Made by a program: the position numbers and the translations under genes. Of a DNA stretch of 54,883 nucleotides, positions 9,626-25,562 are shown in pieces. Origin of the DNA: Clostridia bacterium (lineage in GTDB: Bacteria > Bacillota > Clostridia > Oscillospirales > CAG-272); contig JAGBYM010000007.1 in the NCBI GenBank assembly GCA_017628755.1, forward strand, positions 1-54,883. The letters are read 5' to 3'. The notes below the pieces were generated by a model. That model saw nothing but the letters and a program-made list of their open reading frames with translations, was not told where the DNA came from and did not search any database. Within the stretch, counting starts at the first letter, position 1. Every line of letters starts with the position of its first letter.

Positions 9626-11487
9626 TGTGGGAATTAGACTTCGATAAAGTTTTACTTTTGCGTATACCATTTGATGAAGCTGTTTCTTTTGATAAAAGTG
9701 CTTTATTCAAGTTGTTTTTAAGGCGATATATAAGCGAGATTTGTGTAAACTTGATTAGATTCAAATCCTCTTTGACTTATTTGGATTTCAAAAAGATTAT
9801 TGAATTATGTCAAAAAGAGGCTACAAAATGCAATTTTGAGCTTTTTGTGTCAAACGCTCTTTCCAACTACATAGCCAATAAAGAAATGCATTTGGAAATC
9901 AGATCACGCCTTGGCATAGAACTAAAAGCCAAAGACGAAAAACTACTGATTCATTTTAAAAAGTACAGTTCCACCGTCAATTCTTTAATGGCGCGCAAAC
10001 TCCGAGATAAACAAATGTGGGACTCGTTTTTCATGTATACAATGAAAAAATCAGCCAACTTTTCTGTTCCCGGATCGGGTAAAACTTCATCAGTGCTTGG
10101 CGTTTATGCCTATCTCAAACACACAGAAAATATTAACCGAGTTGTCGTTGTGTGTCCCAAAAACGCTTTTGGATCATGGATAGATGAATTTTCAGTATGT
10201 TTCGAAGGAATAGAGCAATTGCGAGTTTTAAACATCCATTCGCATCAATACAAAAATCAAGCTCAACGAAGATCTGCTTTGCAATTTCATTCCGGATCTT
10301 GTAACTTAATCCTCGTCAACTACGAAGCTGTCGGTGGTGTTGTTGATATATTAGGAGATATAATAGATGCTTCAACACTGCTAGTCTTTGATGAAGTACA
10401 TAAGGTAAAACGCATTAATGGGGAATATGCAACCAACTCAGTAAGGCTTGCCCAAAAGGCTTATTATGCAATTGCAATGACAGGCACCCCCATCCCTAAC
10501 TCGTATACTGACATTTACAATCTTCTCAACATTCTTTATCCGGATGAATATGATGAATTCTTCAATTTCACAATACCAATGCTCCGCAATCCCACTAGCA
10601 ATGAAATTCAAGAAATTAACAATAAACTCCAACCGTTTTTTTGTCGAACAACAAAAGATCAGTTGGGAGTTCCTCCCGCAAATGCAGACAAGCTTTGTGA
10701 TATAGTTGCATCTAACTCGGAAAGCAGATTATTACAAATTCTCAAGACTAAGTATAAAAACAATAAACTTGCTTTTTTGATTCGTATATTACAGCTTGAA
10801 AGCTGTCCAAGAATGCTGCTTAACGCTCTAGATTTAAGCGAATTTGAGTATTTGCTTGATGATTCCGTTGATATATCTAAAATTGATTATGCTGACTATA
10901 GCGATGAAGTCAAGAATCTCATAGAATCCATCCCGACTTCGACGAAATTTACCAAATGTATAAATTTAACAGCATCTCTTGTCAAGCAAGGAAAGCCTGT
11001 CATAGTCTGGTGTATGTTTGTGGATTCAATAAAACGTATAGAGCAAACACTTTGCACAATGGGCATTCGCTGCAAATGCATATATGGCGAAGTCGAGTTA
11101 GATGACCGACAGCAAATAATTACAGATTTTAAATCTGGAGAACTTCAGGTGCTGTTGACTAATCCGCATACACTCGCAGAATCGGTATCGCTCCACAACA
11201 TTTGTCACGATGCCATTTATTTCGAATACAGTTACAACCTCGTTCATTTACTTCAATCGAAAGATCGAATACACCGCCTGGGACTTTCGGAAAATCAATA
11301 TACGCAATATTATTATATGCAAACCTATTACAGCACCGATGACGGAAATTGGAGTATGGACAGAGCGGTATATGACAGATTAAAAGAAAAAGAGCAAATA
11401 ATGCTCGATGCTATTGATAATAATATTCTCGAAATTATGCCTACCAGCAATGACGATCTTGATATTATTTTCGGTAAATTAAAATAA
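9625..11487 (+). CDS. SNF2-type (superfamily 2) helicase/translocase
   Basis: About 620 residues, start ATG 9625 overlapping the upstream TGA. The N-terminal 130 residues are unrecognised. Superfamily 2 motifs follow: Walker A PGSGKTS (Gly150-Thr154), motif II DEVH (256-259), motif III AMTGTPIPNS, and motif VI DRIHRLG (547-553) in the SNF2-like form. A VIVWCMFVDSIKRIEQTL segment is the start of the C-terminal RecA lobe. It should hydrolyse ATP and translocate on double-stranded DNA, remodelling protein-DNA complexes. No nuclease or methylase is fused. It ends the operon, followed by a perfect terminator. Confidence 0.88.
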   Translation: MWELDFDKVLLLRIPFDEAVSFDKSALFKLFLRRYISEICVNLIRFKSSLTYLDFKKIIELCQKEATKCNFELFVSNALSNYIANKEMHLEIRSRLGIELKAKDEKLLIHFKKYSSTVNSLMARKLRDKQMWDSFFMYTMKKSANFSVPGSGKTSSVLGVYAYLKHTENINRVVVVCPKNAFGSWIDEFSVCFEGIEQLRVLNIHSHQYKNQAQRRSALQFHSGSCNLILVNYEAVGGVVDILGDIIDASTLLVFDEVHKVKRINGEYATNSVRLAQKAYYAIAMTGTPIPNSYTDIYNLLNILYPDEYDEFFNFTIPMLRNPTSNEIQEINNKLQPFFCRTTKDQLGVPPANADKLCDIVASNSESRLLQILKTKYKNNKLAFLIRILQLESCPRMLLNALDLSEFEYLLDDSVDISKIDYADYSDEVKNLIESIPTSTKFTKCINLTASLVKQGKPVIVWCMFVDSIKRIEQTLCTMGIRCKCIYGEVELDDRQQIITDFKSGELQVLLTNPHTLAESVSLHNICHDAIYFEYSYNLVHLLQSKDRIHRLGLSENQYTQYYYMQTYYSTDDGNWSMDRAVYDRLKEKEQIMLDAIDNNILEIMPTSNDDLDIIFGKLK

Positions 11488-11579: not shown

Positions 11580-12851
11580 TTAATCTATTAATTTATAGCG
11601 AGTGGATTTACCAACTTTTTTACTTTCGACAAGAGGAGGATTGTGTTCTATCAACCTCTGCATTAAGGAACTGACTTTCTGCTCCGATAAATCAGATATT
11701 GGCAAAATACTCTTCATTAACTCACCTATGGTATACTGCTTACCCTCTTCCATACCTTTTACAATCTCTCTCATCAAGGCATTGTTTGCAATGGCATATG
11801 GAGTGTTTCCGGTCGGAACTATTAAGTATTCTCGAGGTTTCTTCGGCTTAGCCGGTAGCGGAAACTTTTCTTCAACTTCTTTGGCAATGCGTTTTTTCTG
11901 TTTATTGACCCACTGATCAATTGAATTAATGTCCGACCTATATTGGTTTTCTGCCTCTATAAGCGAGGCTTCAATTTTATTGATTTCTTCGGAAAGTTCT
12001 TCAATATGTTTATTTAATCTCATAGTTTCTAACAATTGCCAAAACTTAAGAGACTCCATTCTTTCCTCTGCTTCGCTCTTTTCTTTTTGGAGCTCGCTAA
12101 GTTGTGTATTCGCCTTACTTACAGATGTGCTATAGTGCTTTTCAACTTTTTCCTTTCGCTTTATCGTGGCTTCTTCCATCAATTGTGACGTTAATTCATC
12201 TCTTTGGGAGTTTATTTGCTCGGCTTTAGCTAACCATTTCTCATATTTCCGGTTATATTCACTCTCTGCCTTGATGCGGTCTTCCTCTTCTTGATCTTTT
12301 CTCTTTTTTGCTATCTCTGCTTTTCTTTCCTTTTCAGCCTTTTCTGCTTCTTTTTTTACTCGTGTGATTTCTTTTTCCGTTTCTTCTTTATCGGGATGCA
12401 TGTCATATTTAGTCTCCCAAAAACTTTGTATCATTTTGCTTTCAAGAGACGGATAATATCTAATATTGGCAACATCACCCAAACTGTTATAATTTAAAGA
12501 TGCAGTAAAATTATTCTCTATTTCTGATGATTTATTGAGCCATTCTATCATGTCTCTGACTTCGCGAATCGATGCTGCATCCGGATTTTGATCCAAAAGA
12601 GGCCGACATTTTTCGTCAAGAATAACAACTAGGGTTTGGCAGGACGAATAGAGTGCTTCACAAATTCGTCTCGCTTCGCTTGCTATGTCCGCAACTGAAC
12701 TGACAGCGTGCCCGCCAAACAAATCTATATTATGGCTTGTTTTTGATTGTAACGCTCTCGATGCGCTCTCGAATTCACGCTCTGCTTTCTCGGCGCTTTT
12801 TTTGACTGCGTTTACAGCATTTCTTATTGCTTCACTTGCGGTATTAGACAT
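11580..12851 (-). CDS. Coiled-coil protein with C-terminal winged helix
   Basis: A 423-aa cytoplasmic protein. Residues 1-50 are helical, 60-145 form a compact domain I do not recognise, and about 155-340 are highly charged coiled coil rich in Lys and Glu (REITRVKKEAEKAEKE-like heptads). After a KPKKPREYLIVP linker the last 70 residues (YTIGELMKSILPISDLSEQK, then SSLMQRLIEHNPPLVESKKV) look like a winged helix. No enzyme motif is visible. It has its own perfect promoter and converges on the helicase operon across a shared terminator, so it may be a partner or simply a neighbour. Low GC matches the helicase operon more than sbcDC. Confidence 0.72.
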   Translation of the reverse strand: MSNTASEAIRNAVNAVKKSAEKAEREFESASRALQSKTSHNIDLFGGHAVSSVADIASEARRICEALYSSCQTLVVILDEKCRPLLDQNPDAASIREVRDMIEWLNKSSEIENNFTASLNYNSLGDVANIRYYPSLESKMIQSFWETKYDMHPDKEETEKEITRVKKEAEKAEKERKAEIAKKRKDQEEEDRIKAESEYNRKYEKWLAKAEQINSQRDELTSQLMEEATIKRKEKVEKHYSTSVSKANTQLSELQKEKSEAEERMESLKFWQLLETMRLNKHIEELSEEINKIEASLIEAENQYRSDINSIDQWVNKQKKRIAKEVEEKFPLPAKPKKPREYLIVPTGNTPYAIANNALMREIVKGMEEGKQYTIGELMKSILPISDLSEQKVSSLMQRLIEHNPPLVESKKVGKSTRYKLID

Positions 12852-12967: not shown

Positions 12968-12996
12968 TTGATATTTATACATATTTATGTTATAAT
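12968..12996 (+). promoter_or_regulatory. Promoter of the sbcDC operon
   Basis: TTGATA (12968-12973), 17-bp spacer, TATAAT (12991-12996), 49 bp before the sbcD start. It is divergent from the coiled-coil gene's promoter 40 bp away. Confidence 0.85.
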
Positions 12997-13045
12997 TAAT
13001 CAATAAATATTATTATAGGCCCAACATATTCAAAGGAGTGTCACT

Positions 13046-14185
13046 ATGAAGCTATTCCACCTTTCCGATTTACACCTCGGCAAGCGAGTAAACGATTTTT
13101 CGATGCTCGATGAACAGGAAGCTATATTAAAGCAAATTATTGATTATATCAAACGTGAAAGTCCCGACGGAGTATTAATTGCGGGCGATATTTATGACAA
13201 ATCCATTCCGTCCGCTGAAGCGGTACAGTTGTTCGATAATTTTCTGGTTGAGCTAGCGAAACTTCATCTGCAGGTCTTCATAATCAGCGGCAACCACGAT
13301 TCGCCCGAGCGCATTGCGTTTGGCTCGCGGATTATGGATGTCAGCGGTATTCATCTGTCTCCTGTGTATAACGGTGAAATAGCGCCGATAAGTCTGTCCG
13401 ATGAATACGGAGCGGTTAATATTTATATGCTCCCCTTCATCAAACCCGCACACGTTCGCAGATATTTTGAGGATGAAGATATCGTTACATATACCGATGC
13501 AATGAAAGTTGCAATAGACAAAATGGCTGTCGATGAAACAGAGAGAAATATTCTGGTTACTCACCAGTTCGTCACGGGTGCCGCTACTTGCGAATCCGAA
13601 GATATATCTGTCGGTGGCACCGACAACGTAGATGCTTCCGTATTCAGTCCGTTCGATTACGTTGCCCTCGGACACATTCACGGTGCCCAGAACTGCGGCG
13701 ATGAACGCATCCGTTATTGCGGAACGCCTTTGAAATACTCCTTCTCCGAGGTTCATCATCAAAAATCAATTACAGTTGTTGAGCTTGGCGCCAAAGGTGA
13801 TCTCAATATATCGACCATTGAGCTTACTCCCGTACATGATATGAGCGAGATCAAAGGCACTTTTGCGGAGCTTACAGATCCCGTATACTACACAGAAAAT
13901 TCGATCGTCAACAACTATCTTCGCATAACTCTCACCGATGAAGAGGACGTTCCTGATGCAATCGGGCGGTTACGTCAGATTTATAAAAACCTGATGCGCC
14001 TTGATTACGATAATACAAGAACAAGAAGCAATACCATTTTCTCCGACGGAGGGGATACCGAGAGAAAAACACCGTTTGATCTCTTCTCCGAATTCTATGA
14101 GATGCAGAACAATGCGCCTATGTCGGAGGAACAGCGCGAATATATGAAAAAGCTTATCGAAAAGATCGAGGAGGAGATAGCATGA
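13046..14185 (+). CDS. sbcD: Exonuclease subunit SbcD
   Basis: A 379-aa metallophosphoesterase, the nuclease half of the SbcCD (Mre11-Rad50 type) complex that cuts hairpins and protein-blocked DNA ends. Metal-binding motifs run in order: HLSDLHLGK (residues 5-13), AGDIYDKS (about 46-53), SGNHDSPER (about 80-88), and the later GHIHG box. ATG 13046 has AAAGGAG 9 nt upstream. The stop overlaps the sbcC start by 4 bp. The complex usually acts in the nucleoid on replication and repair intermediates and on phage ends. Here it heads the array that continues to 25433. Confidence 0.95.
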   Translation: MKLFHLSDLHLGKRVNDFSMLDEQEAILKQIIDYIKRESPDGVLIAGDIYDKSIPSAEAVQLFDNFLVELAKLHLQVFIISGNHDSPERIAFGSRIMDVSGIHLSPVYNGEIAPISLSDEYGAVNIYMLPFIKPAHVRRYFEDEDIVTYTDAMKVAIDKMAVDETERNILVTHQFVTGAATCESEDISVGGTDNVDASVFSPFDYVALGHIHGAQNCGDERIRYCGTPLKYSFSEVHHQKSITVVELGAKGDLNISTIELTPVHDMSEIKGTFAELTDPVYYTENSIVNNYLRITLTDEEDVPDAIGRLRQIYKNLMRLDYDNTRTRSNTIFSDGGDTERKTPFDLFSEFYEMQNNAPMSEEQREYMKKLIEKIEEEIA

Positions 14186-16950
14186 GACCGACAAAACTTA
14201 CAATATCAGCTTTTGGACCGTATGCGGGTCTCACAGTGCTTGATCTGGACAAGCTAGGTGAATCGGGACTTTATCTCGTCACCGGAACCACCGGTGCAGG
14301 AAAGACCTCTATCTTTGATGCCATAACCTATGCTCTTTACGATCAGCCAAGTGGCAACGCGCGCGATGATTCTATGCTCCGCTCAAAATATGCAGATCCT
14401 TCAACGGATACTTTTGTCGAATTGGAATTTCTTTATAACGGAAAGTCTTACAAGGTAAGAAGAAGTCCGGAGTACACCCGCCCGAAAAACCGCGGAGAAG
14501 GTATGACCAAACAGCTTGCCAAGGCGGAATTGAAGTATCCCGACGGTCGTATCGTTGATAAAAGCAAGAAGGAAGTCACCAAGGCGGTCGAGCAAATCAT
14601 CGGCATCGACAGAAATCAGTTTTTACAGATCGCTATGATAGCGCAGGGCGACTTTTTGCGCCTTTTGTTAGCAAAAACCGAAGAGAGAAAAGCAATCTTC
14701 CGGCAAATATTCAAAACGCAGAAGTTTGAAAAGATCCAATATGCACTCAAAGACGAGGCAAAGCAGCTTTACGGTAGATTCTCGGATTCAAGAAAGAGTT
14801 TGCTGACTTATGCCGCGGGAATCGTTTGCAATGAGGAAAATCCGCTTTATCCGGATGTAAAGGCCGCAAAAGAAGGAACCTGCACAACCGAGAGAACTGT
14901 CGAACTCATTCGCAAACTCATCGCCGAAGATGAAACTTCACAAAATGAGTTGGTAAGCGAGATGGAATCTCTCGCCAAAGAGCTTGCCGCCGTCAACGAA
15001 AACATCGGAAAAGCCGAGGAGTACAAGAAAAATCTTGAAGCTTATGAGCGCAAGCAGCTTGAAGTTCCTATAATAACAGGGAATTTTGCCGATTCTCAAA
15101 AAGCACTTGAGCAAGAGCAAGCAAAACAACCCGAAAGGGAGCAGATCGAAAAGGATATTGCAACCATTGACTCCGAGCTTCCGAAATATGATGCAATTGA
15201 ATCACTCGCCCGTGAAATCGCGGAACTTGAACGCAAAATAGGATCAGATCAAAAACTTCAGGAGTCAACTCAAAACCAAATAGACGTAAAAACCGCAGAG
15301 ATCGAAGCAAGCAAGAAAAAAATTGCTTCCCTCGAATCCGCGGGAGCAAAAAAAGAACAGCTTGAATCAGAACGCGAACGTCACAATGACCGAAAGACCA
15401 AGCTTGAATCATTGAAAACCGACTTGTCCGCATATTTCGCTCTGTGCAAGGAACTGAAAGTTAAGCAGAGCAAATACGAAAGCCTCGCTGAGATCGCGGA
15501 CAATGCTTTAAGCAAGTACAATATGATGAACCGTATGTTCCTTGACGAACAAGCGGGAATTATCGCCTCTACCTTGGAGGAAGGTAGTCCTTGCCCCGTT
15601 TGCGGTTCGGTACACCATCCCGTCCTTGCGACAATGTCCCAAAATGCCCCCGGTGAGGCAGATCTGAAGGCAGCTAAAAAGGCATCCGACCAGGCTCAAC
15701 AGGATGCCAACAATATGAGTGTCGAATGCGGTAAGCTGAGAGGACAAGTCGAAAAGGCTGCAGAGACATTGGATAAACAAATCAAAGAGATGCTCGGTGA
15801 TATTACGGCTGAAGAAGCGGATTCACAAATCGGCACAGTCATTGATGAAATCTGCAATGAAATCTTTGATCTTACCCAAAAGGTTATGCTCGAGGAACGG
15901 AATATTAATGAAAAAGAATCTCTGTCCCAAACCCTTCCTTTTCAAGAACAAGCTCTTGAAAAGCTTCGCACAGAGCTCAACCTCTATATTCAATCGATGG
16001 CCGCAGATACTGCAACAAAGAACAGCAAGCAAGAACAGCTTGCACAAGTGCAGAAAGAACTGCGATTTGCCAATAAAGCTGAAGCCACCCGAAAGCTTAC
16101 CGATTTAAGATCAAGAAAAGATTCACTCCAAAAAGCTCTTGAGAACGCAAATGCGGAGTATAATAAGCGAAAAGAGGCGCTTGCCAAGTTAGAAGGCGAG
16201 CTGGAAGTACTTGCGGAAGTCGTCTCCAAGGTCTGTACCATCAACCTCGAAGAAGAAAAAGGAAAAAAGAAAGATCTAGAAACCCAAAACGCAGCATATC
16301 AGAAAGTAAAAGAAAGCGTCATTTCCAGACTTGATGCCAACACCTATTGTCTAAAGAAAATTGAAGAGGCCACTGAAGAAGCCAAGGCTCTGGAGGCGCA
16401 TTACAAGTGGATCAACACTCTCGCCGAAACTGCCAACGGAGGTTTGAGCGGTAAAGAAAAGATTATGCTGGAAACTTATATCCAGATGAACTATTTCGAC
16501 CGTATCCTCATCCGCGCAAACATAAGACTGCAAAAGATGACGAACGGTCAGTACGATCTCGTGCGCCGTACCAACGATGGCAACCGTCAATCACAGGTTG
16601 GCCTTGATCTCGACGTCATAGACCATTACAACGGTACACAGCGTCCCGTCAACTCGCTTTCCGGCGGAGAATCCTTCAAGGCATCTCTCGCATTGGCTCT
16701 CGGACTTTCGGATGAGATACAAGCATCATCTGGAGGCGTCCGTCTTGACACGATGTTCGTAGACGAAGGCTTCGGTTCTCTTGATGATGAATCCCTGCAG
16801 CTTGCCATTTCAACTCTTCAGGAGCTCACAGAAGGCAATCGACTTGTCGGAATAATCTCTCACGTAGGCGAACTGAAAACAAGGATTGATAAGCAGATCG
16901 TCGTTACAAAAGGGCTTACCGGCGGAAGCAGCTGTAAGATTGTAGTTTAA
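14182..16950 (+). CDS. sbcC: Exonuclease subunit SbcC, SMC/Rad50-like ATPase
   Basis: A 922-aa Rad50-type ATPase. Walker A is GTTGAGKT (35-42), followed by long coiled-coil arms broken by the zinc hook CPVC (Cys471 and Cys474). The C-terminal ABC signature LSGGESFKAS, Walker B and D-loop (MFVDEGFGSLD) close the ATPase head. It opens and closes DNA ends to SbcD. Size is near the usual range for Firmicutes. It is translationally coupled to sbcD. The next gene begins 57 bp later with no terminator between, so read-through into the vWA-SIR2-MoxR cluster is likely. Confidence 0.95.
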   Translation: MRPTKLTISAFGPYAGLTVLDLDKLGESGLYLVTGTTGAGKTSIFDAITYALYDQPSGNARDDSMLRSKYADPSTDTFVELEFLYNGKSYKVRRSPEYTRPKNRGEGMTKQLAKAELKYPDGRIVDKSKKEVTKAVEQIIGIDRNQFLQIAMIAQGDFLRLLLAKTEERKAIFRQIFKTQKFEKIQYALKDEAKQLYGRFSDSRKSLLTYAAGIVCNEENPLYPDVKAAKEGTCTTERTVELIRKLIAEDETSQNELVSEMESLAKELAAVNENIGKAEEYKKNLEAYERKQLEVPIITGNFADSQKALEQEQAKQPEREQIEKDIATIDSELPKYDAIESLAREIAELERKIGSDQKLQESTQNQIDVKTAEIEASKKKIASLESAGAKKEQLESERERHNDRKTKLESLKTDLSAYFALCKELKVKQSKYESLAEIADNALSKYNMMNRMFLDEQAGIIASTLEEGSPCPVCGSVHHPVLATMSQNAPGEADLKAAKKASDQAQQDANNMSVECGKLRGQVEKAAETLDKQIKEMLGDITAEEADSQIGTVIDEICNEIFDLTQKVMLEERNINEKESLSQTLPFQEQALEKLRTELNLYIQSMAADTATKNSKQEQLAQVQKELRFANKAEATRKLTDLRSRKDSLQKALENANAEYNKRKEALAKLEGELEVLAEVVSKVCTINLEEEKGKKKDLETQNAAYQKVKESVISRLDANTYCLKKIEEATEEAKALEAHYKWINTLAETANGGLSGKEKIMLETYIQMNYFDRILIRANIRLQKMTNGQYDLVRRTNDGNRQSQVGLDLDVIDHYNGTQRPVNSLSGGESFKASLALALGLSDEIQASSGGVRLDTMFVDEGFGSLDDESLQLAISTLQELTEGNRLVGIISHVGELKTRIDKQIVVTKGLTGGSSCKIVV

Positions 16951-17007
16951 TATATACATATAAAGCACAACGTCAAAGTAATACTTGGGAATCCGAGGGT
17001 GCAAAAA

Positions 17008-18363
17008 ATGAACGAAACAGAAAAGTGGAAACAAGTGAATAAACTCGCAAGAGACGTGTTAATTCTGTCCAGAAATACACTTTTGGTTAACCTTCGTTTT
17101 CTGGATATCGCCCTCAGTAAATTCGAATACATCCCGATACAGGAATCCTCCATCTTGACTGACGGTGAACTAATTTTTTACAATCCCAAGCATCTGCTTG
17201 AAAACTATAAGCTTGCCAAAGAAATTCCGGTAAGGGATTATTTGCACATTGTGATGCATTGCGTATTCCGACATATGTATATGGATCCGACTCTGAACAG
17301 ACCTTACTGGGATCTGGCTTGCGATATTGCCGTAGAAAACGTAATAACCGATCTCAATTTAAAATCAGTTTCTGCACCGAGAGAACGATATCAAGCCCAA
17401 TATCTCTTAGAGTTAAAAAGCCAATTAAAGCTTTTAACTGCTGAAAAGATCTATTCTTTTTTGATGCAGACTAAACCCGATCCCGTGAAAATTTCGGAGA
17501 TTCGCGGCTTGTTCTACGCAGATAACCATGAGATCTGGTATATGACCGATAAGGAAATCGAATTGAAATTTGGTTTATCACCTTGTCAGACAACGGACTG
17601 TAACGAAAGCAAAAGCAATCAATCCCGAACCGCCATGGCTTCCGTATGGCAAACAATATCAGAGCGAATGCAGGTAGATTTAGAAACCTTTGGCAAACAA
17701 CGAGGGGTGAATCCCGGTTTTCTGACACAAAACCTTCAATCTGTAAACCGCGAGAAATACGATTATACTTCGTTTCTCAAGAAATTTGCCGTTATGGGCG
17801 AGGCAATGAAGATCAACGAAGATGAGTTCGACTATATCTTCTACACCTACGGACTGCAGCTTTACGAAAACATGCCTCTCATTGAACCTTTGGAGTACAA
17901 AGATATCAAAGCAATAAAGGAATTCGTCATTGCAATAGACACCTCCGGGTCCACTTCAGGTGAGTTGGTGCAGAAATTTGTGCAAAAAACCTATAACATT
18001 CTCAAATCCACCGAAAGCTTTTTTGCGAAAATCAACCTGCACATCATCCAGTGCGATGCGGATATACAGGAAGACGTAAAGATTACCCGTCAGGAAGAAT
18101 TTGATGAATACATCAAAAATATGAAAATACGGGGATTAGGCGGAACCGACTTCCGACCTGTGTTTGAATATGTAGAACAGCTTCGACAGAAGAAGGAATT
18201 TACAAATCTCAAAGGTATAATATACTTTACCGACGGGTATGGGGTATTCCCTGCCAATAAGCCGGACTACAATACAGCTTTTGTATTCGTCGATGATAAT
18301 TATAATAATCCGGAAGTGCCCTCATGGGCAATCAAATTGATTTTACAAAAAGATGAAATATAG
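17008..18363 (+). CDS. DUF2201-like / vWA-domain protein, partner of the MoxR ATPase
   Basis: About 451 residues. ATG 17008 was chosen because GAGGG lies 8 nt upstream; GTG 16999 is embedded in that site. The N-terminal domain resembles the putative metallopeptidase DUF2201: His80-x-x-x-His84 and His89, then WDLACDIAVENVI. The position usually holding the catalytic Glu (HExxH) is Ile81, so it may bind metal without cleaving. The C-terminal von Willebrand A domain keeps a full MIDAS: DTSGS (from Asp311), Thr380 in GGTDF and Asp409 in FTDG. vWA/MoxR pairs act as ATP-driven chaperone-like machines; the MoxR partner is encoded 2.6 kb downstream. Confidence 0.82.
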   Translation: MNETEKWKQVNKLARDVLILSRNTLLVNLRFLDIALSKFEYIPIQESSILTDGELIFYNPKHLLENYKLAKEIPVRDYLHIVMHCVFRHMYMDPTLNRPYWDLACDIAVENVITDLNLKSVSAPRERYQAQYLLELKSQLKLLTAEKIYSFLMQTKPDPVKISEIRGLFYADNHEIWYMTDKEIELKFGLSPCQTTDCNESKSNQSRTAMASVWQTISERMQVDLETFGKQRGVNPGFLTQNLQSVNREKYDYTSFLKKFAVMGEAMKINEDEFDYIFYTYGLQLYENMPLIEPLEYKDIKAIKEFVIAIDTSGSTSGELVQKFVQKTYNILKSTESFFAKINLHIIQCDADIQEDVKITRQEEFDEYIKNMKIRGLGGTDFRPVFEYVEQLRQKKEFTNLKGIIYFTDGYGVFPANKPDYNTAFVFVDDNYNNPEVPSWAIKLILQKDEI

Positions 18364-18374
18364 GAGGCAAAAAT

Positions 18375-18741
18375 ATGGGATTTGTTATTAAAGGCGGAAT
18401 CCTAAAAAGTACGCAGAAGAAAACGGAGTAACTGAGGTAATTGTGCCGGACGGCAAGAACATCCGTGTCAAACGTTCTCACGGATGGGGATTTCTCCTAC
18501 ATTCGAAAATCTATGCTCCGAATGTAGTGGAAGCATATTCTCAATACGTGGGCAGTCAAAAAAGTACTATCTGCCTGAGATTTTCAAAAAGGATTTGGTA
18601 CAGGGATTGGTTACCTACGCGGAACTTGGCAAAATAACCAAAGCAAATTTTGAAAAAGATTATCTTGCACTCGCAACCGAGTATGGAGCAGTACAGTGTA
18701 TTGCGTATTTGTTGGAGTGGAAGAAAACGATATTGAAATAG
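18375..18741 (+). pseudogene. Frameshifted LRR-family gene remnant
   Basis: A good ribosome site (AGGAGG) precedes ATG 18375, and the product starts MGFVIKGGILK like the neighbouring LRR proteins, then stops after 18 codons. Adding one A at the A-run near 18404 restores YAEENGVTEVIVPDG onward, and one A at the A-run near 18560 restores YYLPEIFKKDL through to VQCIAYLLEWKK. The C-terminal 60 residues then resemble the middle of the next gene (LLPKLYTEDNVDGLRIFANT ... QCVAFLLNLK). Both breaks fall at A-runs followed by GTAC. It is either a decayed short paralog, a sequencing or assembly error, or a slippage-dependent gene. Confidence 0.75.
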
Positions 18742-18757
18742 GAGTGTTTAAATTTAT

Positions 18758-20047
18758 ATGAGTAGCGCAAGTGATTTTATTATTAAAAACGGTATACTGA
18801 AAAAGTACGTTGGCCCCGGTGGGTATGTGGTCATCCCGGAGAGCGTGACAGAGATTGGCAACGAAGCCTTTGCAGATAATAAAAACATCACTGAAATCTG
18901 TATGCATGATGGGTTACAGAGAGTTGGCAAGAAGGCATTCTATAATTGCCGACAGTTAGCAAAAATAACTCTCTCATCTCAACTTGTGTTCGCTGGCGAA
19001 GAGGCGTTTTCATTCTGCACAAATCTGAAAACACTTATATTACCCGACAGTCTTGTCGTTGCAAATGTCGATAAGATTATAAACGACTGCTGGAATCTAA
19101 GAGAAATATACATACCCCGGGGGGCTGGAATTAAAGCGACTAAAGATTACGAAAAACTGATGGGACCATGGTATCTTCGTCTGGATGGATGCAACCGCAT
19201 CGAAAAAATTACAGCACCGCATATTTCTTGCGAACAAATTGCTGAAAAGCGAGTTCTTGCTGCACTATGGGGATATTTATGCAGCCCAGAAATCTATTGT
19301 GAGCATGTTGTTGAAGACTATCAGCAAAGCTGTTTCAAATTTAGAAAAAAATTACTCCCAAAGCTCTACACAGAGGATAATGTAGATGGATTGAGAATCT
19401 TTGCCAACACCGGTAAAATCACTCTAAAAAATATTGACAAAGATTTTCTGGAGCCCGCACTTGTTGCAGGAGCAACGCAATGTGTCGCTTTTTTGTTGAA
19501 TCTAAAAAATGAGTGCACCACTTCTTCTAAAACACCACCTCGTACCAACAGCATAATCAAGAGTACAGAAAACAAAAAGAAATCCGTTTCTCCTGAAGAG
19601 CGAATGCTAAAAAAATTGTGGGGATTTGAAGAAAAAAACAACAAAATTCGTCTTCTAACGTACAAAGGCGAAGAAACAACAGTAATCATACCCGCCCATA
19701 TTGGACAAAGTGCCGTCGCAGTCATTGCTCGCGGTGCCTTTACTGGTACTTATGGACACGGCAGTAACCGAAGGGAGCGCGCGATTTCCGAAATAGTTTC
19801 AATCGAAATCCAAGATGGTGTTCGCGAAATCCAAGGGGCTGCGTTCCGCTGGTGTAATAATTTAGAAATGATCAAAATCCCTAAAAGTGTTAAAAAGATT
19901 GCGACATATCGGTTTGATGAAACACGTAAAAAGTTGTTGAGCGAGCCAGCATTCATGGGATGTCCCAAATTAACCATCTACGCCCCGGCGGGCAGCTATG
20001 CTGAAACATATGCAAAAGAAAATAACATCCCCTTCGTGGCGGAATAA
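18758..20047 (+). CDS. BspA-type leucine-rich-repeat (LRR_5) protein, cytoplasmic
   Basis: A 429-aa protein with no signal peptide. After SDFIIKNGILKKY, LRR_5 units run from about residue 24 to 110 (VIPESVTEIGNEAF, ITLSSQLVFAGEEAF, ILPDSLVV). A middle module (about 165-250) is shared with the upstream pseudogene. After a Ser/Thr/Lys linker a second LRR block (about 310-415) ends with the family's usual LTIYAPAGSYAETYAKENN. The LRR face would bind a protein partner, so a sensor or adaptor role is likely, but that is inferred. The stop is 14 bp before the SIR2-like gene. The ribosome site AGGAG lies about 13 nt before ATG 18758, longer than usual. Confidence 0.82.
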   Translation: MSSASDFIIKNGILKKYVGPGGYVVIPESVTEIGNEAFADNKNITEICMHDGLQRVGKKAFYNCRQLAKITLSSQLVFAGEEAFSFCTNLKTLILPDSLVVANVDKIINDCWNLREIYIPRGAGIKATKDYEKLMGPWYLRLDGCNRIEKITAPHISCEQIAEKRVLAALWGYLCSPEIYCEHVVEDYQQSCFKFRKKLLPKLYTEDNVDGLRIFANTGKITLKNIDKDFLEPALVAGATQCVAFLLNLKNECTTSSKTPPRTNSIIKSTENKKKSVSPEERMLKKLWGFEEKNNKIRLLTYKGEETTVIIPAHIGQSAVAVIARGAFTGTYGHGSNRRERAISEIVSIEIQDGVREIQGAAFRWCNNLEMIKIPKSVKKIATYRFDETRKKLLSEPAFMGCPKLTIYAPAGSYAETYAKENNIPFVAE

Positions 20048-20061
20048 GGTGAAAAACCAAA

Positions 20062-20955
20062 ATGGAAGAAAGTAAATTGCAATTGGCATATGGACAAGTT
20101 CCCAAAGTATTGCTTTTGGGAAACGGTATTAACCGAGCCTATGGATTTGCCTCTTGGGATGAAATGATCGAGTCAATTCGAACGAAAGATTTATCGGATA
20201 GAGAAAAGGAATGTGTGAAAAATATTCCCTATCCGTTGCAACCGGTGATTTTGACCAGCGACCATTTGGGAATGCAAATGGAAATCATCTCCGAGCAGCT
20301 TTCATTACTGAATGCTGGAACAGAAGAAAATGAAATGCTGCGCACTTTTGCTTCCTTGCCAGTGGACACAATTCTTACCGCTAATTATACCTATGAACTG
20401 GAAAAAGCATTGAACTCCAGCTTTACCTGTCTGCCTGGACGTAGATGCAGCTTCAGAAAAAGTGCGTATACGGAAGGTGGAAAATATAACACTGAGCAGT
20501 TGCATACCTACTTTGATGTAAACAAGTATCCACCGATATGGCATATCCATGGAGAAGCCGCACGGCACAACACAATGGTTTGGGGGCACTACTATTACGG
20601 AAAGCTGTTAGCTAAAATGCAACAATATATATCATCGTTACTGTCATGCTACAACGCAAGAGCGGCCAAGGGGCAAAGCATGAATCTGCGCAGCTGGCTG
20701 GATTACTTCATGTTGGGAGATGTACATATTGTCGGATTGGGTATGGCACTATCAGAGATAGATCTTTGGTGGCTGGTCAACTGCAAGAAACGTCATTTTC
20801 CGGACAGGCAAGTGATCCTGTATAAGCCGGATATGAAACCGGAAGAAAAACTACTAGCTGAGGCATACAGTGTAACGGTGAATACCGATGGCTTTACCGG
20901 AGATTATAAAGCCTACTACAGTTGGCTCTGCACAGAGCTGGAGAGAATACTATGA
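20062..20955 (+). CDS. SIR2-like domain protein, candidate NAD+-consuming effector
   Basis: A 297-aa protein with the SIR2-like fold signature: VLLLGNGINRAYG (15-28, dinucleotide-binding loop), LTANYTYELE (106-115, with Asn108), IWHIHGE (159-165, candidate catalytic His) and HIVGLGMALSEIDLWW (222-237). In anti-phage systems such as Thoeris, DSR and SIR2-Argonaute pairs, this fold depletes NAD+ and stops the cell. Being SIR2-like, it lacks the zinc cysteines of classical deacetylases as far as I can see. It overlaps the MoxR gene by 4 bp (ATGA), so the two are made together. Activity is inferred from family knowledge. Confidence 0.8.
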   Translation: MEESKLQLAYGQVPKVLLLGNGINRAYGFASWDEMIESIRTKDLSDREKECVKNIPYPLQPVILTSDHLGMQMEIISEQLSLLNAGTEENEMLRTFASLPVDTILTANYTYELEKALNSSFTCLPGRRCSFRKSAYTEGGKYNTEQLHTYFDVNKYPPIWHIHGEAARHNTMVWGHYYYGKLLAKMQQYISSLLSCYNARAAKGQSMNLRSWLDYFMLGDVHIVGLGMALSEIDLWWLVNCKKRHFPDRQVILYKPDMKPEEKLLAEAYSVTVNTDGFTGDYKAYYSWLCTELERIL

Positions 20956-22469
20956 ACATCAAACAAGCTAAACAACAAATTATGAACGCTATACAGGCGT
21001 ATTTCACCAAGGATCAATTTGGTAATTATATAATTCCGATAGAGCGACAGCGCCCAGTATTTCTTATGGGCCCTCCCGGTATTGGAAAAACCGCAATTAT
21101 GGAGCAAATTGCCCAAGAGTTGGGAGTGGGTTTGGTTAGTTACTCTATGACCCACCATACCCGCCAGAGTGCGCTTGGTCTGCCCTTCATCGAGAAGAAG
21201 CTTTATGGCGGGCAAGAATACAGTGTGTCAGAGTACACTATGTCCGAAATCATTGCCTCTGTCTATGATATGATGGAGAGCACTAGCATAAAAGAAGGCA
21301 TACTGTTCTTGGACGAGATCAACTGCGTTTCCGAGACACTTGCCCCTGCTATGTTGCAATTTTTGCAGTATAAAATTTTCGGAAGACACCGCGTGCCTGA
21401 CGGTTGGATCGTTGTTACTGCAGGAAATCCCCCCGAATATAACAATTCGGTTCGCGAGTTTGACATAGTAACGTGGGATCGCCTCAAGCGTATAGATGTG
21501 GAGCCTGACTATAATGTATGGAAAGAATATGCCTACAAGAAGGGCGTTCACGCTTCTATTATAACATATTTGGATATCAAGAAGTCTGACTTTTACAAAA
21601 TCGAAACGACAGTAGACGGAAAAAGCTTCGTTACTGCGCGAGGTTGGTCGGACCTTTCAGATATGATTAAGCTGTACGAGCAGCACGGTATCACGGTAGA
21701 TGAAAAGCTGATCGGTCAGTATCTGCAAAATAAAAAGATTGCAAAAGATTTTGCCATCTACTATGATCTGTTCAAGAAATACAAATCCGATTATCAGGTA
21801 GACACCATTCTCGCCGGCGAAGCATCAGAAGATATCAAATCACGTGCGAAAGAAGCAAAGTTTGATGAGCGCCTGGCTTTACTCGGGCTAATATTAGATG
21901 CCGTTACAGGCGAGTTACGGAAAATCAGTATTTTCGAGCAAACTCTTGCAGAGCTTCTTGGCTGCCTGAAAAATATTAGAAATGAGCTAACCCAACCCGA
22001 TGTCTCCGCCGCAATTTCCCTTAAGAAGCAGATTGATAATCTTAAGAACAAGATTCGAATTGGCAAGCTGGCATCCACGCTATCCACAGATGCAGAGTAC
22101 TCTTATAATAGTGCAATTTCTATTTTGGATGAAATGCAAACAATGATTATCAGTAAGGAACCTATGTCAGGTACAGATGATTTTAAGTTGCTGAAAAGCG
22201 AATTCGACAAACAAACGAAATTGCTGAAAAGACAAGCCGACTTTGCAGGGAAACAGCTATCCAATGTGTTTACATTTTGCGAAGATGTGTTCGGTGACGG
22301 ACAGGAGATGCTTATTTTAGTTACCGAGTTGACCATAAGTTACTATGGAGCACACTTCATCAGCCGCTATGGATGCGATAAGTACTTCAAACATAACAAA
22401 GAATTACTATTCTATGAACGTCAGAAGGAAATCATTCGGGAAATTGAAAATCTGGAATCGGAGGATTAA
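20952..22469 (+). CDS. MoxR-type AAA+ ATPase with C-terminal helical extension
   Basis: A 505-aa ATPase. ATG 20952 was chosen because it overlaps the SIR2-like stop in the ATGA form. Walker A GPPGIGKT (40-47), Walker B LFLDEINC (Asp121-Glu122) and sensor 1 TAGNPPEYNN fit the MoxR branch. The C-terminal 200 residues are charged and helical, probably coiled coil, and not part of the usual short MoxR. MoxR proteins work with vWA-domain partners to remodel or activate other proteins; the vWA gene at 17008 is the obvious partner. It sits between the SIR2-like gene and the LRR-DUF4132 gene. Confidence 0.88.
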   Translation: MNIKQAKQQIMNAIQAYFTKDQFGNYIIPIERQRPVFLMGPPGIGKTAIMEQIAQELGVGLVSYSMTHHTRQSALGLPFIEKKLYGGQEYSVSEYTMSEIIASVYDMMESTSIKEGILFLDEINCVSETLAPAMLQFLQYKIFGRHRVPDGWIVVTAGNPPEYNNSVREFDIVTWDRLKRIDVEPDYNVWKEYAYKKGVHASIITYLDIKKSDFYKIETTVDGKSFVTARGWSDLSDMIKLYEQHGITVDEKLIGQYLQNKKIAKDFAIYYDLFKKYKSDYQVDTILAGEASEDIKSRAKEAKFDERLALLGLILDAVTGELRKISIFEQTLAELLGCLKNIRNELTQPDVSAAISLKKQIDNLKNKIRIGKLASTLSTDAEYSYNSAISILDEMQTMIISKEPMSGTDDFKLLKSEFDKQTKLLKRQADFAGKQLSNVFTFCEDVFGDGQEMLILVTELTISYYGAHFISRYGCDKYFKHNKELLFYERQKEIIREIENLESED

Positions 22470-22475
22470 AAACAA

Positions 22476-25433
22476 ATGAGTACCGCAAAGGATTTTGTAA
22501 TTAAAAAAGAAATACTAATCAAATACAAGGGCGCTGGCGGTCAAGTGATAATTCCCGAAGGCGTGACGAGAATTGGCGATAAAGCGTTCAGTGAGTGTAA
22601 GAATCTCACAAGCGTGGTTATCCCCGAGGGCGTGAAGAGTATTGGCTGGGCAGCGTTCAGCCATTGTTATAACCTCACAAGCGTAGTTATTCCGAAAAAT
22701 GTGACAAGTATTGGCACATTTGCGTTCAGCTATTGTTATAGCCTAACAAGCATAGTTATTCCCGAGGGCGTAACAAGTATTGGCGATAATGCGTTCATCC
22801 ATTGTTCTAACCTCACAAATGTGGTCATTCCGGAAAGCGTAACGAGTATTGGCGATGCAGCGTTCCAAGAGTGTAAGGGACTCGCCGATGCGCATGGTTT
22901 TGTTATTGTTCGAGGAATGCTTTATCACTATTATGGTACATCCGTGGATGTGGTTATTCCGGAAGGTGTGACGAGTATCGCAGATCGTGTGTTCAGCAAT
23001 TGTAATAATCTTACAAACATAGTTATTCCGGCTGGCATGATGAGTATCGGCTATCAGGCGTTCAAAGACTGCAAGAGCCTCACAAGTGTGGTTTTTCCCG
23101 ATAGCATGAAGAGTATCGCCTCTGACGCATTTTGGGGTTGTGAAAGTCTCGCAAATGTGGTTATTCCCGAAGGTGTGACGAGCATTGGCAACGGTGCGTT
23201 CTGCGGATGTACAAGCCTTACCAGTGTGGTTATTCCCTCAAGTGTAACGAGCATTGGCTGGTTTGCGTTCAGTGGATGTACGAATCTCAAGAGCGTGGTG
23301 GTGTCCGAAAACGTGGAAGACATTGGTGATGAGGCTTTTCTCGGTTGCAGAAATCTTAAAATACTCGGACATCTTTCCTCGTCATGCAAGCTGGGAAAGA
23401 ATGTGTTTGGCGAAGAATTGTCCGAAGAACTTTTAAAGTTGGGCATCGCATTTTGGGTGTGTATGTCGGATGCTCAATTCAAGAAATATTTTCTCAACAA
23501 ACAATCATGGGATGCGCTCACAAATGAAGCGAGAGCGGAGAGCTTTCTGACACGACAGGGCAAGTCTTTGCTAGGTACCTATCAATCGCTCGTTGGTGCG
23601 GAAGAAGCTGCGTTGATCGGAGAAATGCTGATAAAGAAGCTTTCAGACGAACCGAATGCAAAAGATTGCACCGTCGCCGCGAACTTTATGACAATATTCT
23701 TTGATATTGCAACGACAGACCTGCTCTGTACGCTTTATTCCAAACTGAAGAATTTGAAGGAAGCAAAAAAAGCACTCGATGTGATTGAGAAGCACGCGCC
23801 ACTGATGGAAAAACTTAGTTGCGACATAGGTGTTGTCGAATCCTTACCTGAAGCAGAGCAAATGATTATGAACATACTACTCGCGAAAAAGTTAATTCCG
23901 AAAGATATAGAGAAGAAATTTAAGGATTTTTACAGCCTTACGTTTTCCAATTTGCCTGAACTGCAGGATGCAAACGGGAAGGTATTAAATCCTATTGTTC
24001 TTGCCTATCTCCTAACGATACACGAAATGCAGTTGGAATATTTGGGAGTTTTTGCTGACTATAAAGATCCCGGTCTTTGCCCCGAAGCAAAAGAGATTGT
24101 CAAACTTCTCGATGAACAAAGCTTGCAACGATCATTGATGAAGCTGGCGGACGCCAATTTGGGCCTTGCGGGACATAGCAAGAAGAAGGATCTCGCCTAT
24201 CCTATTTGCCGCTATGCCAATGAAGCGACTATGGCGGAGCTGACCAAACGCGCTCCGTTATGGCGTTCTTCCGTTTCCGGTGACAATGCACCTCCGTTTG
24301 CAACATTCTGTTATGCGAATATGTATAGCAACACGCGCGCTGCTATGCTCTTTGCTGATAAGTACAATAAACTTGCCAGATATGCTGAAATCCGCAACAC
24401 AACTGAAGATGATTTGCGAGATCGATTCCTCTCCGATGTTGGCGTTCATGAGAATGGACGAAAGAGCTATGATCTCGGCAATCAAATAGTCACTGCGGTA
24501 CTGCAAAATGACTTTGGATTCCTGATTGAGCTTCCGAATGGTAAGATGGCTAAGAGCTTGCCTAAAAAAGGTGCAGATGAGGGAAAGTACGCAATTGCCA
24601 ATGCAAGCTTTACGGAGATGAAAAAGGCAGTCAAGCGTATAGCCAAAAACCGTAGTGCCAGCCTTTTTAAGCACTTCCTTAATGGCAATACAAGAAATGC
24701 AGATGATTGGAAAAACGTCTATCTTTCCAATCCGATTCTGCGTATGACAGCAAAACTTCTTGTTTGGACACAGGACGAAAAAACATTTACTCTTGGAGTA
24801 GATAACGCTATTAATGCGATCGGTGAGTCGTATACACTTTCAGATTCTCCCATCAGGCTCGCTCATCCGATGGAGATGACAACGGAAGACGTTAATGCAT
24901 GGCAGAAATATTTTTCTACTCAGGGAATCAAACAACCTTTTGAGCAGATCTGGGAGCCGATCATCGATCCCGCATCGGTTACAAATGATCGTTATAAGGA
25001 TTGCGGTATTCCGTATTATCGCTTCCACGATCAGAGCAAGCGCGGAATTACCGTCGAGGATTTAAACTTCCATGATGACATAAGAATCTCTATCGAAGGA
25101 TGCGAAACTGTAATAACGCGTCTTGATTTCGAATCCCATTGTATTGATATGAATCATCGCTTTGCCGTGCAGGAATTTGGATTCAAGGATTACACACGCA
25201 GGGTTAATCATATCGTTGCGTATCTTGACCGAATAACCGTATATGACCGCATTAAGAAAGACGATGTATCCGTTGCACCTCTCTTGTCGCAGTTCACGCT
25301 AGCACAGATTACAGAGTTTATTAAGGTCGCGCAAGAAAATAATTGCACAAACGTTACCGCAATCTTGCTTGACTTCAAAAACCGTGCGTTTGCTGACTTC
25401 GATCCAATGGATGAGTTCACATTTGAGATTTGA
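22476..25433 (+). CDS. LRR_5 repeat protein fused to DUF4132
   Basis: A 985-aa protein with GGAGG before its ATG and 6 bp after the MoxR stop. Residues about 24-300 hold about eleven LRR_5 units of the form VIPEGVTSIGDxAFxxCxxLT, with one diverged insertion (ADAHGFVIVRGMLYHYYGTS). A large helical middle (about 310-780) leads to a C-terminal DUF4132 (MolR_C-like) signature, RLAHPMEMTTEDVNAW then QPFEQIWEP (about 788-830). DUF4132 proteins recur with MoxR/vWA conflict systems in comparative-genomics literature. The LRR part may sense a target and the DUF4132 part signal to the ATPase; this is inference. It ends the array, and two terminators follow. Confidence 0.85.
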   Translation: MSTAKDFVIKKEILIKYKGAGGQVIIPEGVTRIGDKAFSECKNLTSVVIPEGVKSIGWAAFSHCYNLTSVVIPKNVTSIGTFAFSYCYSLTSIVIPEGVTSIGDNAFIHCSNLTNVVIPESVTSIGDAAFQECKGLADAHGFVIVRGMLYHYYGTSVDVVIPEGVTSIADRVFSNCNNLTNIVIPAGMMSIGYQAFKDCKSLTSVVFPDSMKSIASDAFWGCESLANVVIPEGVTSIGNGAFCGCTSLTSVVIPSSVTSIGWFAFSGCTNLKSVVVSENVEDIGDEAFLGCRNLKILGHLSSSCKLGKNVFGEELSEELLKLGIAFWVCMSDAQFKKYFLNKQSWDALTNEARAESFLTRQGKSLLGTYQSLVGAEEAALIGEMLIKKLSDEPNAKDCTVAANFMTIFFDIATTDLLCTLYSKLKNLKEAKKALDVIEKHAPLMEKLSCDIGVVESLPEAEQMIMNILLAKKLIPKDIEKKFKDFYSLTFSNLPELQDANGKVLNPIVLAYLLTIHEMQLEYLGVFADYKDPGLCPEAKEIVKLLDEQSLQRSLMKLADANLGLAGHSKKKDLAYPICRYANEATMAELTKRAPLWRSSVSGDNAPPFATFCYANMYSNTRAAMLFADKYNKLARYAEIRNTTEDDLRDRFLSDVGVHENGRKSYDLGNQIVTAVLQNDFGFLIELPNGKMAKSLPKKGADEGKYAIANASFTEMKKAVKRIAKNRSASLFKHFLNGNTRNADDWKNVYLSNPILRMTAKLLVWTQDEKTFTLGVDNAINAIGESYTLSDSPIRLAHPMEMTTEDVNAWQKYFSTQGIKQPFEQIWEPIIDPASVTNDRYKDCGIPYYRFHDQSKRGITVEDLNFHDDIRISIEGCETVITRLDFESHCIDMNHRFAVQEFGFKDYTRRVNHIVAYLDRITVYDRIKKDDVSVAPLLSQFTLAQITEFIKVAQENNCTNVTAILLDFKNRAFADFDPMDEFTFEI

Positions 25434-25453
25434 TATGCTCAAAAGTAGTATCA

Positions 25454-25499
25454 AAAACAGACGATATCCGGCTAATGCTGAATGTCGTCTGTTTTATAC
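25454..25499 (+). terminator. Terminator of the SIR2-MoxR-DUF4132 array
   Basis: AAAACAGACGA (25454-25464) pairs with TCGTCTGTTTT (25485-25495) around a 20-nt loop, 20 bp past the stop codon, then turns T/A-rich. Confidence 0.75.
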
Positions 25500-25532
25500 T
25501 TATCAATCGCAACCATTCCGCAAACAACTCTC

Positions 25533-25562
25533 AAAGCCTATTCGCAAGGATAGGCTTTTTTG
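25533..25562 (+). terminator. Second intrinsic terminator
   Basis: AAAGCCTAT (25533-25541) and ATAGGCTTT (25550-25558) with an 8-nt loop, followed by TTT. It backs up the one at 25454. The 140 bp that follow to the next hairpin hold no gene I can support. Confidence 0.8.

What the first reader, a model, noticed from the sequence alone, without database searches (positions are those of the whole stretch)
12968..25558. SbcDC fused by operon layout to a vWA-LRR-SIR2-MoxR-LRR/DUF4132 array
From one promoter to two terminators, eight co-directional genes (one broken) run with gaps under 60 bp. SbcCD detects DNA ends and hairpins; MoxR plus vWA pairs are ATP-driven remodellers; SIR2-like proteins deplete NAD+ in several defense systems; DUF4132 recurs with MoxR/vWA conflict systems. 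Together they suggest a system in which aberrant DNA is sensed and an NAD+-depleting effector is gated by an ATPase chaperone, with LRR proteins as recognition parts. The full combination is not one I know as described.
Basis: partly seen in the sequence, partly recalled or inferred. Interest (0 to 1): 0.82.

Follow-up and report, generated by a model that had tools for sequence, protein, structure and literature searches.

The report
LRR–MoxR–vWA island with DNA-end nuclease
A gut bacterium carries, on a mobile-looking DNA island, a run of genes pairing a protein-remodelling machine and leucine-rich-repeat proteins with a DNA-end nuclease and an NAD-cutting-type enzyme; related gut bacteria repeatedly place the same nuclease near the machine, which hints at an undescribed defence or DNA-damage system.

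Summary
In detail: eight co-directional genes (one broken) at 13046-25433, gaps under 60 bp, two 4-base overlaps. The core is a DUF2201-type vWA protein plus a MoxR ATPase (motifs intact) with LRR proteins. Of 80 related loci, 69 hold both vWA and MoxR; 55 of 69 have an LRR gene within 3 kb, 10 of 69 a DUF4132 gene, and 1 of 80 a SIR2 gene. So SIR2 is optional.

SbcDC is optional too, but its linkage is not random. sbcD lies within 20 kb of MoxR in 8 of 80 other loci (upper-bound expectation 0.83), on six branches of the SbcD tree besides the window's. In the 49 genomes also searched for a type I methylase, 8 of 30 sbcD genes are linked against 1 of 50 methylase matches (P 0.0013; 0.0076 with one clade counted once). 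Against this: 30 of 30 other same-family sbcDC loci fetched show no cluster. The stem-loop terminators lie in sequence conserved in a relative without the island, and an upstream SNF2 module recurs near the same cluster.

Best reading: a new LRR-based variant of the vWA-MoxR conflict systems, with facultative SbcDC, SIR2, DUF4132 and SNF2 modules. Function is inferred. (Counts.)

The parts
13046..14185 (+). sbcD (Mre11-type nuclease, 379 aa)
   Evidence: TIGR00619 173 bits over cut-off; PF12320, PF00149; phosphoesterase motifs intact by eye; only SbcD match in the held genome, 72.7% complete
14182..16950 (+). sbcC (Rad50-type ATPase, 922 aa)
   Evidence: NF041751 340 bits, TIGR00618 272 bits, both below their cut-offs; Walker A, CPVC hook, signature and Walker B present by eye; 4-base overlap with sbcD
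17008..18363 (+). vWA protein with DUF2201_N metallopeptidase-like domain
   Evidence: PF09967 and PF13203; D311, S313, S315, T380, D409 and H80/H84/H89 invariant in 13 relatives
18375..18741 (+). broken gene of the LRR family (remnant; frames interrupted)
   Evidence: start resembles that of the next gene by eye; profile hit 18553-18726, 83 bits
18758..20047 (+). LRR_5 protein (429 aa)
   Evidence: PF13306 E 5.6e-30
20062..20955 (+). SIR2/AbiH-like protein, candidate NADase effector
   Evidence: AbiH 1.1e-6 and SIR2_2 1e-3, both below Pfam cut-offs; ThsA PADLOC 8.9e-6; profile hit to ThsA 6lhx E 0.0015, Asn and His-Gly positions aligned
20952..22469 (+). MoxR-type AAA+ ATPase
   Evidence: PF07728, bpMoxR 28.5 bits over cut-off 27; Walker A/B, N159, R177 invariant in 13 relatives; ATGA overlap with SIR2
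22476..25433 (+). LRR protein with C-terminal DUF4132 (985 aa)
   Evidence: PF13306 1.5e-93, PF13569 2.5e-27; C-terminal part aligned in 13 sequences; E 6e-13 to E. coli YehI
12968..12996 (+). sigma-70-like site before sbcD
   Evidence: 11 of 12, TG before -10; number of such sites not above shuffles
11580..12851 (-). divergent coiled-coil protein (by eye), possible facultative partner
   Evidence: no family over cut-off; relatives between sbcC and vWA in L044 and before vWA in L046
5646..11487 (+). upstream module: HTH/RNAP-alpha-CTD-like protein, unknown 402-aa protein, SNF2 helicase
   Evidence: same trio directly upstream of vWA in L030; two of three near the cluster in L036, L044, L046, L051
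11..1231 (+). tyrosine integrase of the island
   Evidence: PF00589 7.1e-16
25434..25505 (.). right edge of the island (lies between these positions)
   Evidence: genus relative L277 matches from 25505 rightward, with other genes in place of the island; GC shift

Best explanation
An island-borne vWA-MoxR-LRR ternary NTPase system, most likely a phage/plasmid defence system. MoxR forms the ATPase ring, the vWA protein is its peptide-holding partner, and the LRR proteins (some with DUF4132, elsewhere some with BRCT) are the third, faster-diverging component that recognises the trigger or substrate. ATP-driven remodelling by MoxR-vWA switches attached modules. In this island these are SbcDC, which would recognise or cut aberrant DNA ends, and a SIR2-type enzyme whose gene overlaps moxR, which would deplete NAD+ and arrest the infected cell. 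SbcDC, SIR2, DUF4132 and the SNF2 module are interchangeable add-ons, not the core. Shown: gene content, intact motifs, operon layout, recurrence of the core, non-random linkage of SbcDC. Inferred: complex formation, sensing, NADase activity, defence.
For: Both vWA and MoxR in 69 of 80 loci; LRR within 3 kb in 55 of 69. Motif residues invariant in 13 of 13 vWA and 13 of 13 MoxR chosen for alignment. LRR less conserved than vWA and MoxR in 24 of 24 pairs from six groups that I chose. sbcD within 20 kb of MoxR in 8 of 80 loci, upper-bound expectation 0.83, P 2.7e-6 if independent; inside the held loci 5 against 0.31. Linked SbcD need 7 changes on the SbcD tree, window included. Control PF02384 in the same 49 genomes: 1 of 50 matches within 20 kb of MoxR against 8 of 30 sbcD, P 0.0013, or 0.0076 with the L042/L043/L047 clade counted once. 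SIR2 profile hits NADases ThsA and KomC. Island with integrase and low GC. Sporadic: MoxR orthologue (68% or more) in 4 of 196 family genomes.
Against: No functional data. 30 of 30 other family sbcDC loci fetched lack the cluster in the held DNA, and 41 of the 49 sbcD-bearing genomes of the MoxR set show no link (many contigs are short). Counted only inside the held loci, the clade-collapsed contrast with the control is not significant (3 of 28 against 1 of 50, P 0.13). Only one control gene was used. SIR2 in 1 of 80 other loci; its hits are weak (E 0.0015-0.032) and below Pfam cut-offs. No LRR near the pair in 14 of 69; no vWA in 11 of 80, of which L050 and L052 are not cut short upstream. 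No relative found in viral contigs. BRCT and alkylation-repair neighbours fit DNA repair as well as defence.
Confidence: 0.5

Rival explanations
1. SbcDC is an ordinary accessory repair pair that merely shares the island and transcription with an unrelated MoxR-vWA-LRR cluster.
For: 30 of 30 other family sbcDC loci fetched have no vWA or strong MoxR in the held DNA and no widely shared neighbour of their own (largest group 6 of 30 loci); SbcDC is sporadic in the family, 32 of 196 genomes; islands gather accessory genes.
Against: sbcD within 20 kb of MoxR in 8 of 80 loci on six further branches of its tree; gaps of 12, 27 and 54 bp to a cluster gene in L047, L042 and L071; an accessory methylase is near MoxR in 1 of 50 matches.
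Confidence: 0.27
2. A DNA-damage response or repair-assembly machine rather than a defence system: MoxR-vWA remodels LRR/BRCT proteins and the SbcDC complex at broken ends.
For: BRCT domains in 10 of 76 neighbour proteins, including one inside an LRR protein of L036; DNA-alkylation repair and MGMT-domain genes follow MoxR in L062; MoxR-vWA pairs elsewhere act in assembly of enzyme complexes (PMC7159879, passages read).
Against: Sporadic and island-borne, faster-changing LRR part, SIR2 effector-like protein in two loci (window and L049); no close MoxR orthologue in 192 of 196 family genomes, though two of these hold a distant MoxR-vWA pair at about 27%.
Confidence: 0.18
3. A chaperone system for metalloenzyme or other non-DNA complex assembly, as for RavA-ViaA or the uncharacterised E. 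coli Yeh operon.
For: DUF4132, MoxR and vWA genes together in E. coli yehI-yehQ.
Against: YehL and YehP resemble the window proteins only in short stretches; DNA-acting partners recur.
Confidence: 0.05

Closest known systems
MoxR-vWA-centric ternary conflict systems (Kaur et al. 2020, PMC7159879; passages read)
   Same: MoxR AAA+ plus vWA pair with MIDAS residues, a third component, variable effectors including SNF2-type helicases
   Different: LRR proteins instead of VMAP, iSTAND, FtsH or beta-propeller; vWA is of the DUF2201 type; hosts here are mostly gut Clostridia-type bacteria. In that main text the words DUF2201, BRCT, SIR2, SbcC and leucine-rich do not occur, and LRR occurs only in a reference title
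E. coli yehI-yehK-yehL-yehM-yehP-yehQ (uncharacterised)
   Same: DUF4132, MoxR and vWA genes in one run; DUF4132 homologous, E 6e-13
   Different: MoxR and vWA barely alike (E 0.16 and 0.002); no LRR, SIR2 or SbcDC among the gene names listed
Lamassu (SMC/Rad50-like LmuB with LmuA effectors, PMC10586767; passages read)
   Same: Rad50-like ATPase as likely DNA-structure sensor with interchangeable effectors that may be SIR2
   Different: Here a 922-aa SbcC with SbcD nuclease and Walker B Glu kept; no LmuA or LmuC model hit in the operon; MoxR-vWA-LRR is not among the Lamassu parts named there
Thoeris ThsA and KomC (SIR2 NADases)
   Same: SIR2 core; with ThsA the Asn and His-Gly positions align
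   Different: Similarity weak; family is AbiH/SIR2_2-like; no other Thoeris gene among the PADLOC hits of the operon
Phage-borne families phrog_1314 (vWA) and phrog_1297 (ATPase)
   Same: Both window proteins match these families at E about 1e-40
   Different: Whether the two are paired in phages, and what they do there, was not examined

Membership tests
MoxR-vWA ternary conflict system | MoxR AAA+ with Walker A/B and arginine finger | tested here: met
   residues invariant in 13 of 13; roles recalled
MoxR-vWA ternary conflict system | vWA with MIDAS aspartates, encoded beside MoxR | tested here: met
   both held in 69 of 80 loci, gap under 3 kb in 64 of 69
MoxR-vWA ternary conflict system | third component VMAP, iSTAND, FtsH or beta-propeller | tested here: not met
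   not among Pfam hits of the window operon or the 25 of 54 families shown for 76 neighbours; LRR stands in their place
MoxR-vWA ternary conflict system | variable effector or nucleic-acid modules | tested here: met
   SbcDC, SIR2, SNF2, DUF4132 vary between loci
Lamassu | short LmuB (about 650 aa), generally Walker B Glu to Gln, with LmuA | tested here: not met
   922-aa SbcC with VDEG kept, paired with SbcD; LmuB models at 80 bits or less against SbcC models at 272-340 bits; no LmuA hit in the operon
SbcCD | adjacent sbcD and sbcC with nuclease motifs, ABC ATPase and zinc hook | tested here: met
   SbcC scores below NCBIfam cut-offs; motifs read by eye
SIR2-type NADase effector | catalytic Asn and His of SIR2 in an NADase | tested here: inconclusive

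The most novel reading that the evidence does not exclude
A bacterial NLR-like immune machine in which LRR receptors are worked by a MoxR-vWA ATPase to switch an Mre11-Rad50 (SbcDC) complex and a SIR2 NADase, with SbcDC recruited from repair into defence repeatedly, on about seven branches of its tree.
Probability: 0.2. Interest if true: 0.85.

Novelty: new variant of a known kind. Interest (0 to 1): 0.6.

Why it matters
MoxR-vWA conflict systems are described as preponderant in multicellular bacteria, with other third components. An LRR version, sampled here mostly from gut and rumen Clostridia-type MAGs, would put LRR receptors and an AAA+ motor into one bacterial system. The repeated placing of SbcDC near it makes a concrete question testable: whether a repair nuclease complex is used as a defence sensor or effector outside Lamassu.

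Tried and rejected
Operon limits as given (promoter to two terminators): rejected as the biological unit, because the terminators look chromosomal and the upstream module recurs with the cluster.

SIR2 as a core part: rejected (1 of 80 other loci; 3 of 196 family genomes including the window's own; the other two, L003 and L004, show other genes beside it in the 3.8 kb held).

Lamassu membership: rejected. Identity with the E. coli Yeh system: rejected for MoxR and vWA.

att repeats at the island ends: none convincing; the left end is off the contig. Phage or plasmid carriage: no relative in viral contigs; the 20 of 37 plasmid MoxR hits listed are 22-28% identical; vWA hits at 37-53% lie in seven short unannotated 'Bacteriophage sp.' records, not followed. 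ParB-like nature of the 402-aa protein: suspected by eye, not supported by profile search. PDB search of vWA: none.

Sample and control limits: one search kept the best 80 of 85 relatives found by patterns from the window's own MoxR, so distant systems are missed. All 50 were placed by shared sequence, contig length or contig number: one, in L048, is within 20 kb of MoxR. All 80 loci were also scanned with a profile from 14 of the matches: 1 of 80. Of 34 family sbcD rows (32 genomes), 30 loci besides the window were fetched; G148 and the fragment rows were dropped. The SbcD tree used 79 of 122 sequences, identical and short ones dropped. P values assume independent loci, which related genomes break. 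One search counted L044 as inside the held loci although only part of its sbcC is; one search corrects 6 to 5 and replaces the Fisher values.

Papers: PMC7159879, PMC10910872, PMC10586767 and PMC11090510 seen as passages; others as search listings. Searches for DUF4132, DUF2201, MoxR with DUF4132 and vWA, MoxR with vWA, conflict system and ternary, SbcC with MoxR and defense, yehL/yehP/yehM, MoxR with von Willebrand, leucine-rich repeat and anti-phage, and SbcCD with anti-phage and SIR2 listed no paper whose title or shown abstract start describes this gene set. The library is open-access papers only.
Full report
What is there. The window is contig 114 of a 2.43-Mb, 170-contig draft genome, 72.7% complete. 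Between 13046 and 25433 eight co-directional genes, one broken, are spaced by -4 to 57 bp: sbcD, sbcC, a vWA protein with a DUF2201_N metallopeptidase-like domain, a frame-broken LRR-family remnant, an LRR_5 protein, a SIR2/AbiH-like protein, a MoxR AAA+ ATPase and an LRR protein ending in DUF4132. sbcD/sbcC and SIR2/moxR overlap by four bases. The sequence 1-25.4 kb has 30-46% GC against mostly 45-60% to its right. It begins with a tyrosine integrase and holds a resolvase. A same-genus genome matches the window from 25505 rightward and has other genes (a solute-binding-type protein first, by eye) where the island is. The counts of promoter-like and terminator-like sites in the region do not exceed shuffled sequence.

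The core. A scan for relatives of the MoxR protein kept 80 of 85 loci, from 78 genomes, mostly gut or rumen Clostridia-type MAGs, 43-91% identical (genomes counted). In 69 of 80 both vWA and MoxR lie in the held DNA. Of the other 11, most are cut near MoxR; L050 and L052 are not cut upstream and L050 not downstream. In 64 of 69 the two are under 3 kb apart (42 under 200 bp); 55 of 69 have a co-directional LRR gene within 3 kb and 14 do not. 10 of 69 hold a DUF4132 gene; SIR2 is in 1 of 80 (L049). Pfam over 76 neighbour proteins that I picked: LRR_5 in 43, BRCT in 10, DUF4132 in 8, RNase_T in 3; in L036 an LRR protein itself carries a BRCT domain. MIDAS-type residues and three histidines of the vWA protein, and Walker A, Walker B, Asn and Arg residues of MoxR, are invariant in 13 of 13 chosen sequences each; residue roles are recalled. 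In 24 of 24 pairs from six groups the LRR protein is less conserved than both vWA and MoxR. In the window's own family a MoxR orthologue of 68% identity or more is in 4 of 196 genomes; 17 more have weak hits, two of which (G089, G056) are distant MoxR-vWA pairs. It is therefore a sporadic system with vWA and MoxR constant and LRR usual.

SbcDC. SbcD is found in 32 of 196 family genomes. Thirty of those loci besides the window were fetched and none has vWA or a strong MoxR hit in the 6.4-20 kb held; L163 has a 25-bit MoxR trace. They share no widespread neighbour of their own. Seen from SbcDC, then, the cluster is the exception. Seen from the cluster the picture differs. SbcD is in 49 of the 78 genomes (6 of 6, 22 of 36, 21 of 36; a few matches are partial). 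In five the sbcD gene lies inside the held locus (L042, L043, L047, L051, L071) and in three more on the same contig just outside (L036, L044, L049): 8 of 80 within 20 kb of MoxR, against at most 0.83 expected from genome sizes (P 2.7e-6 if independent; six lineages, P 2.2e-4). Inside the loci it is 5 against 0.31 (P 2e-5). In the six genomes the linked SbcD is the only full-length match. On the SbcD tree the linked state needs at least 7 changes: L036, L044, L049, L051, L071, the L042/L043/L047 clade and the window. Same-strand placing with a gap under 60 bp to a cluster gene occurs in the window, L042 (27 bp), L047 (12 bp) and L071 (54 bp). L043 has the order of L042, but the DUF4132 gene before its sbcD is hardly recognisable. 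In L036 sbcDC is divergent, in L044 a reversed gene intervenes, and in L049 and L051 other DNA lies between.

Control. The type I methylase family PF02384 has 50 matches in 27 of 49 of these genomes; one, in L048, is within 20 kb of MoxR. In the same 49 genomes 8 of 30 sbcD are: Fisher P 0.0013, or 0.0076 with the related clade counted once. Counted only inside the held loci it is 5 of 30 against 1 of 50 (P 0.026), or 3 of 28 with the clade collapsed (P 0.13). The linkage is real but moderate, one control gene was used, and island clustering is not fully excluded.

Other modules. The window's genes 5646-11487 (a protein with RNAP-alpha-CTD-like and HTH segments, a 402-aa protein without Pfam match, an SNF2 helicase) have relatives standing directly before vWA in L030. 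Two of the three also stand near the cluster in L036, L044, L046 and L051, in changing order and strand. The 402-aa protein is in 2 of 196 family genomes, the window's and that of L030, both with the cluster. The reversed gene 11580-12851 has a relative at the same place, between sbcC and vWA, in L044 and a partial one before vWA in L046. The finding is one arrangement of a shuffled set.

SIR2. The protein falls below Pfam cut-offs for AbiH and SIR2_2. A four-sequence profile finds the NADases ThsA (E 0.0015) and KomC (E 0.026); in ThsA the TxNY asparagine and the His-Gly pair align. That these are catalytic in ThsA is recalled; one aligned ThsA entry (8bto) carries Ala at the Asn position. 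NAD+ cleavage is plausible, not shown.

Comparison with what is known. In the passages read, Kaur et al. 2020 (PMC7159879) define MoxR-vWA ternary systems by VMAP, iSTAND, FtsH or beta-propeller third parts; word counts in its main text show no DUF2201, BRCT, SIR2 or SbcC, and LRR only in a reference title. PMC10910872 (passages) links vWA-MoxR-VMAP to CRISPR loci. E. coli K-12 has yehI (DUF4132), yehL (MoxR) and yehP (vWA) in one run: DUF4132 is homologous, while MoxR and vWA resemble the window's only in short stretches. Lamassu couples a Rad50-like protein to effectors that may be SIR2 (PMC10586767, passages), but SbcDC here keeps its Walker B glutamate and its nuclease partner. Literature searches listed no paper whose title or shown abstract start describes this set; the library is open-access only.

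Verdict. Observation confirmed; interpretation partly supported. The best reading is a new LRR-type variant of the vWA-MoxR conflict systems with facultative SbcDC, SIR2, DUF4132 and SNF2 modules. The step from gene content to sensing of DNA ends and gated NAD+ loss is inference (about 0.5 for the general reading, 0.2 for SbcDC as a working part).

Noticed in passing
window 5646-11487: Three-gene module (HTH/RNAP-alpha-CTD-like, 402-aa protein, SNF2 helicase) with relatives beside the same vWA-MoxR cluster in L030 and partly in L036, L044, L046, L051.
   Followed up: partly
window 11580-12851 minus; L044 2435-3274; L046 5608-6198: Coiled-coil-looking protein of unknown family, divergent from sbcD, with relatives near vWA in two other loci.
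   Followed up: partly
window 1-25505: Low-GC island with tyrosine integrase and resolvase; right edge found, left end off the contig.
   Followed up: partly
L036 4913-7966 and 10 of 76 neighbour proteins: BRCT domains among neighbours of the vWA-MoxR pair, in L036 within an LRR protein.
   Followed up: no
L062 11547-13219: DNA-alkylation repair and MGMT-domain genes directly after MoxR.
   Followed up: no
L077, L097, L058: MAGs named Anaerobiospirillum, Coriobacteriaceae and Solobacterium carry MoxR 54-65% identical to the window's: transfer between distant lineages or mis-binning.
   Followed up: no
phage records MT837836, MT839739, MT838983 and others: Short faecal 'Bacteriophage sp.' records hold vWA relatives at 37-53%; true phage carriage or bacterial fragments.
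   Followed up: no
L034, L035 (G089, G056): Distant MoxR-vWA pairs (MoxR about 27% identical) in two other genomes of the family; not examined further.
   Followed up: no
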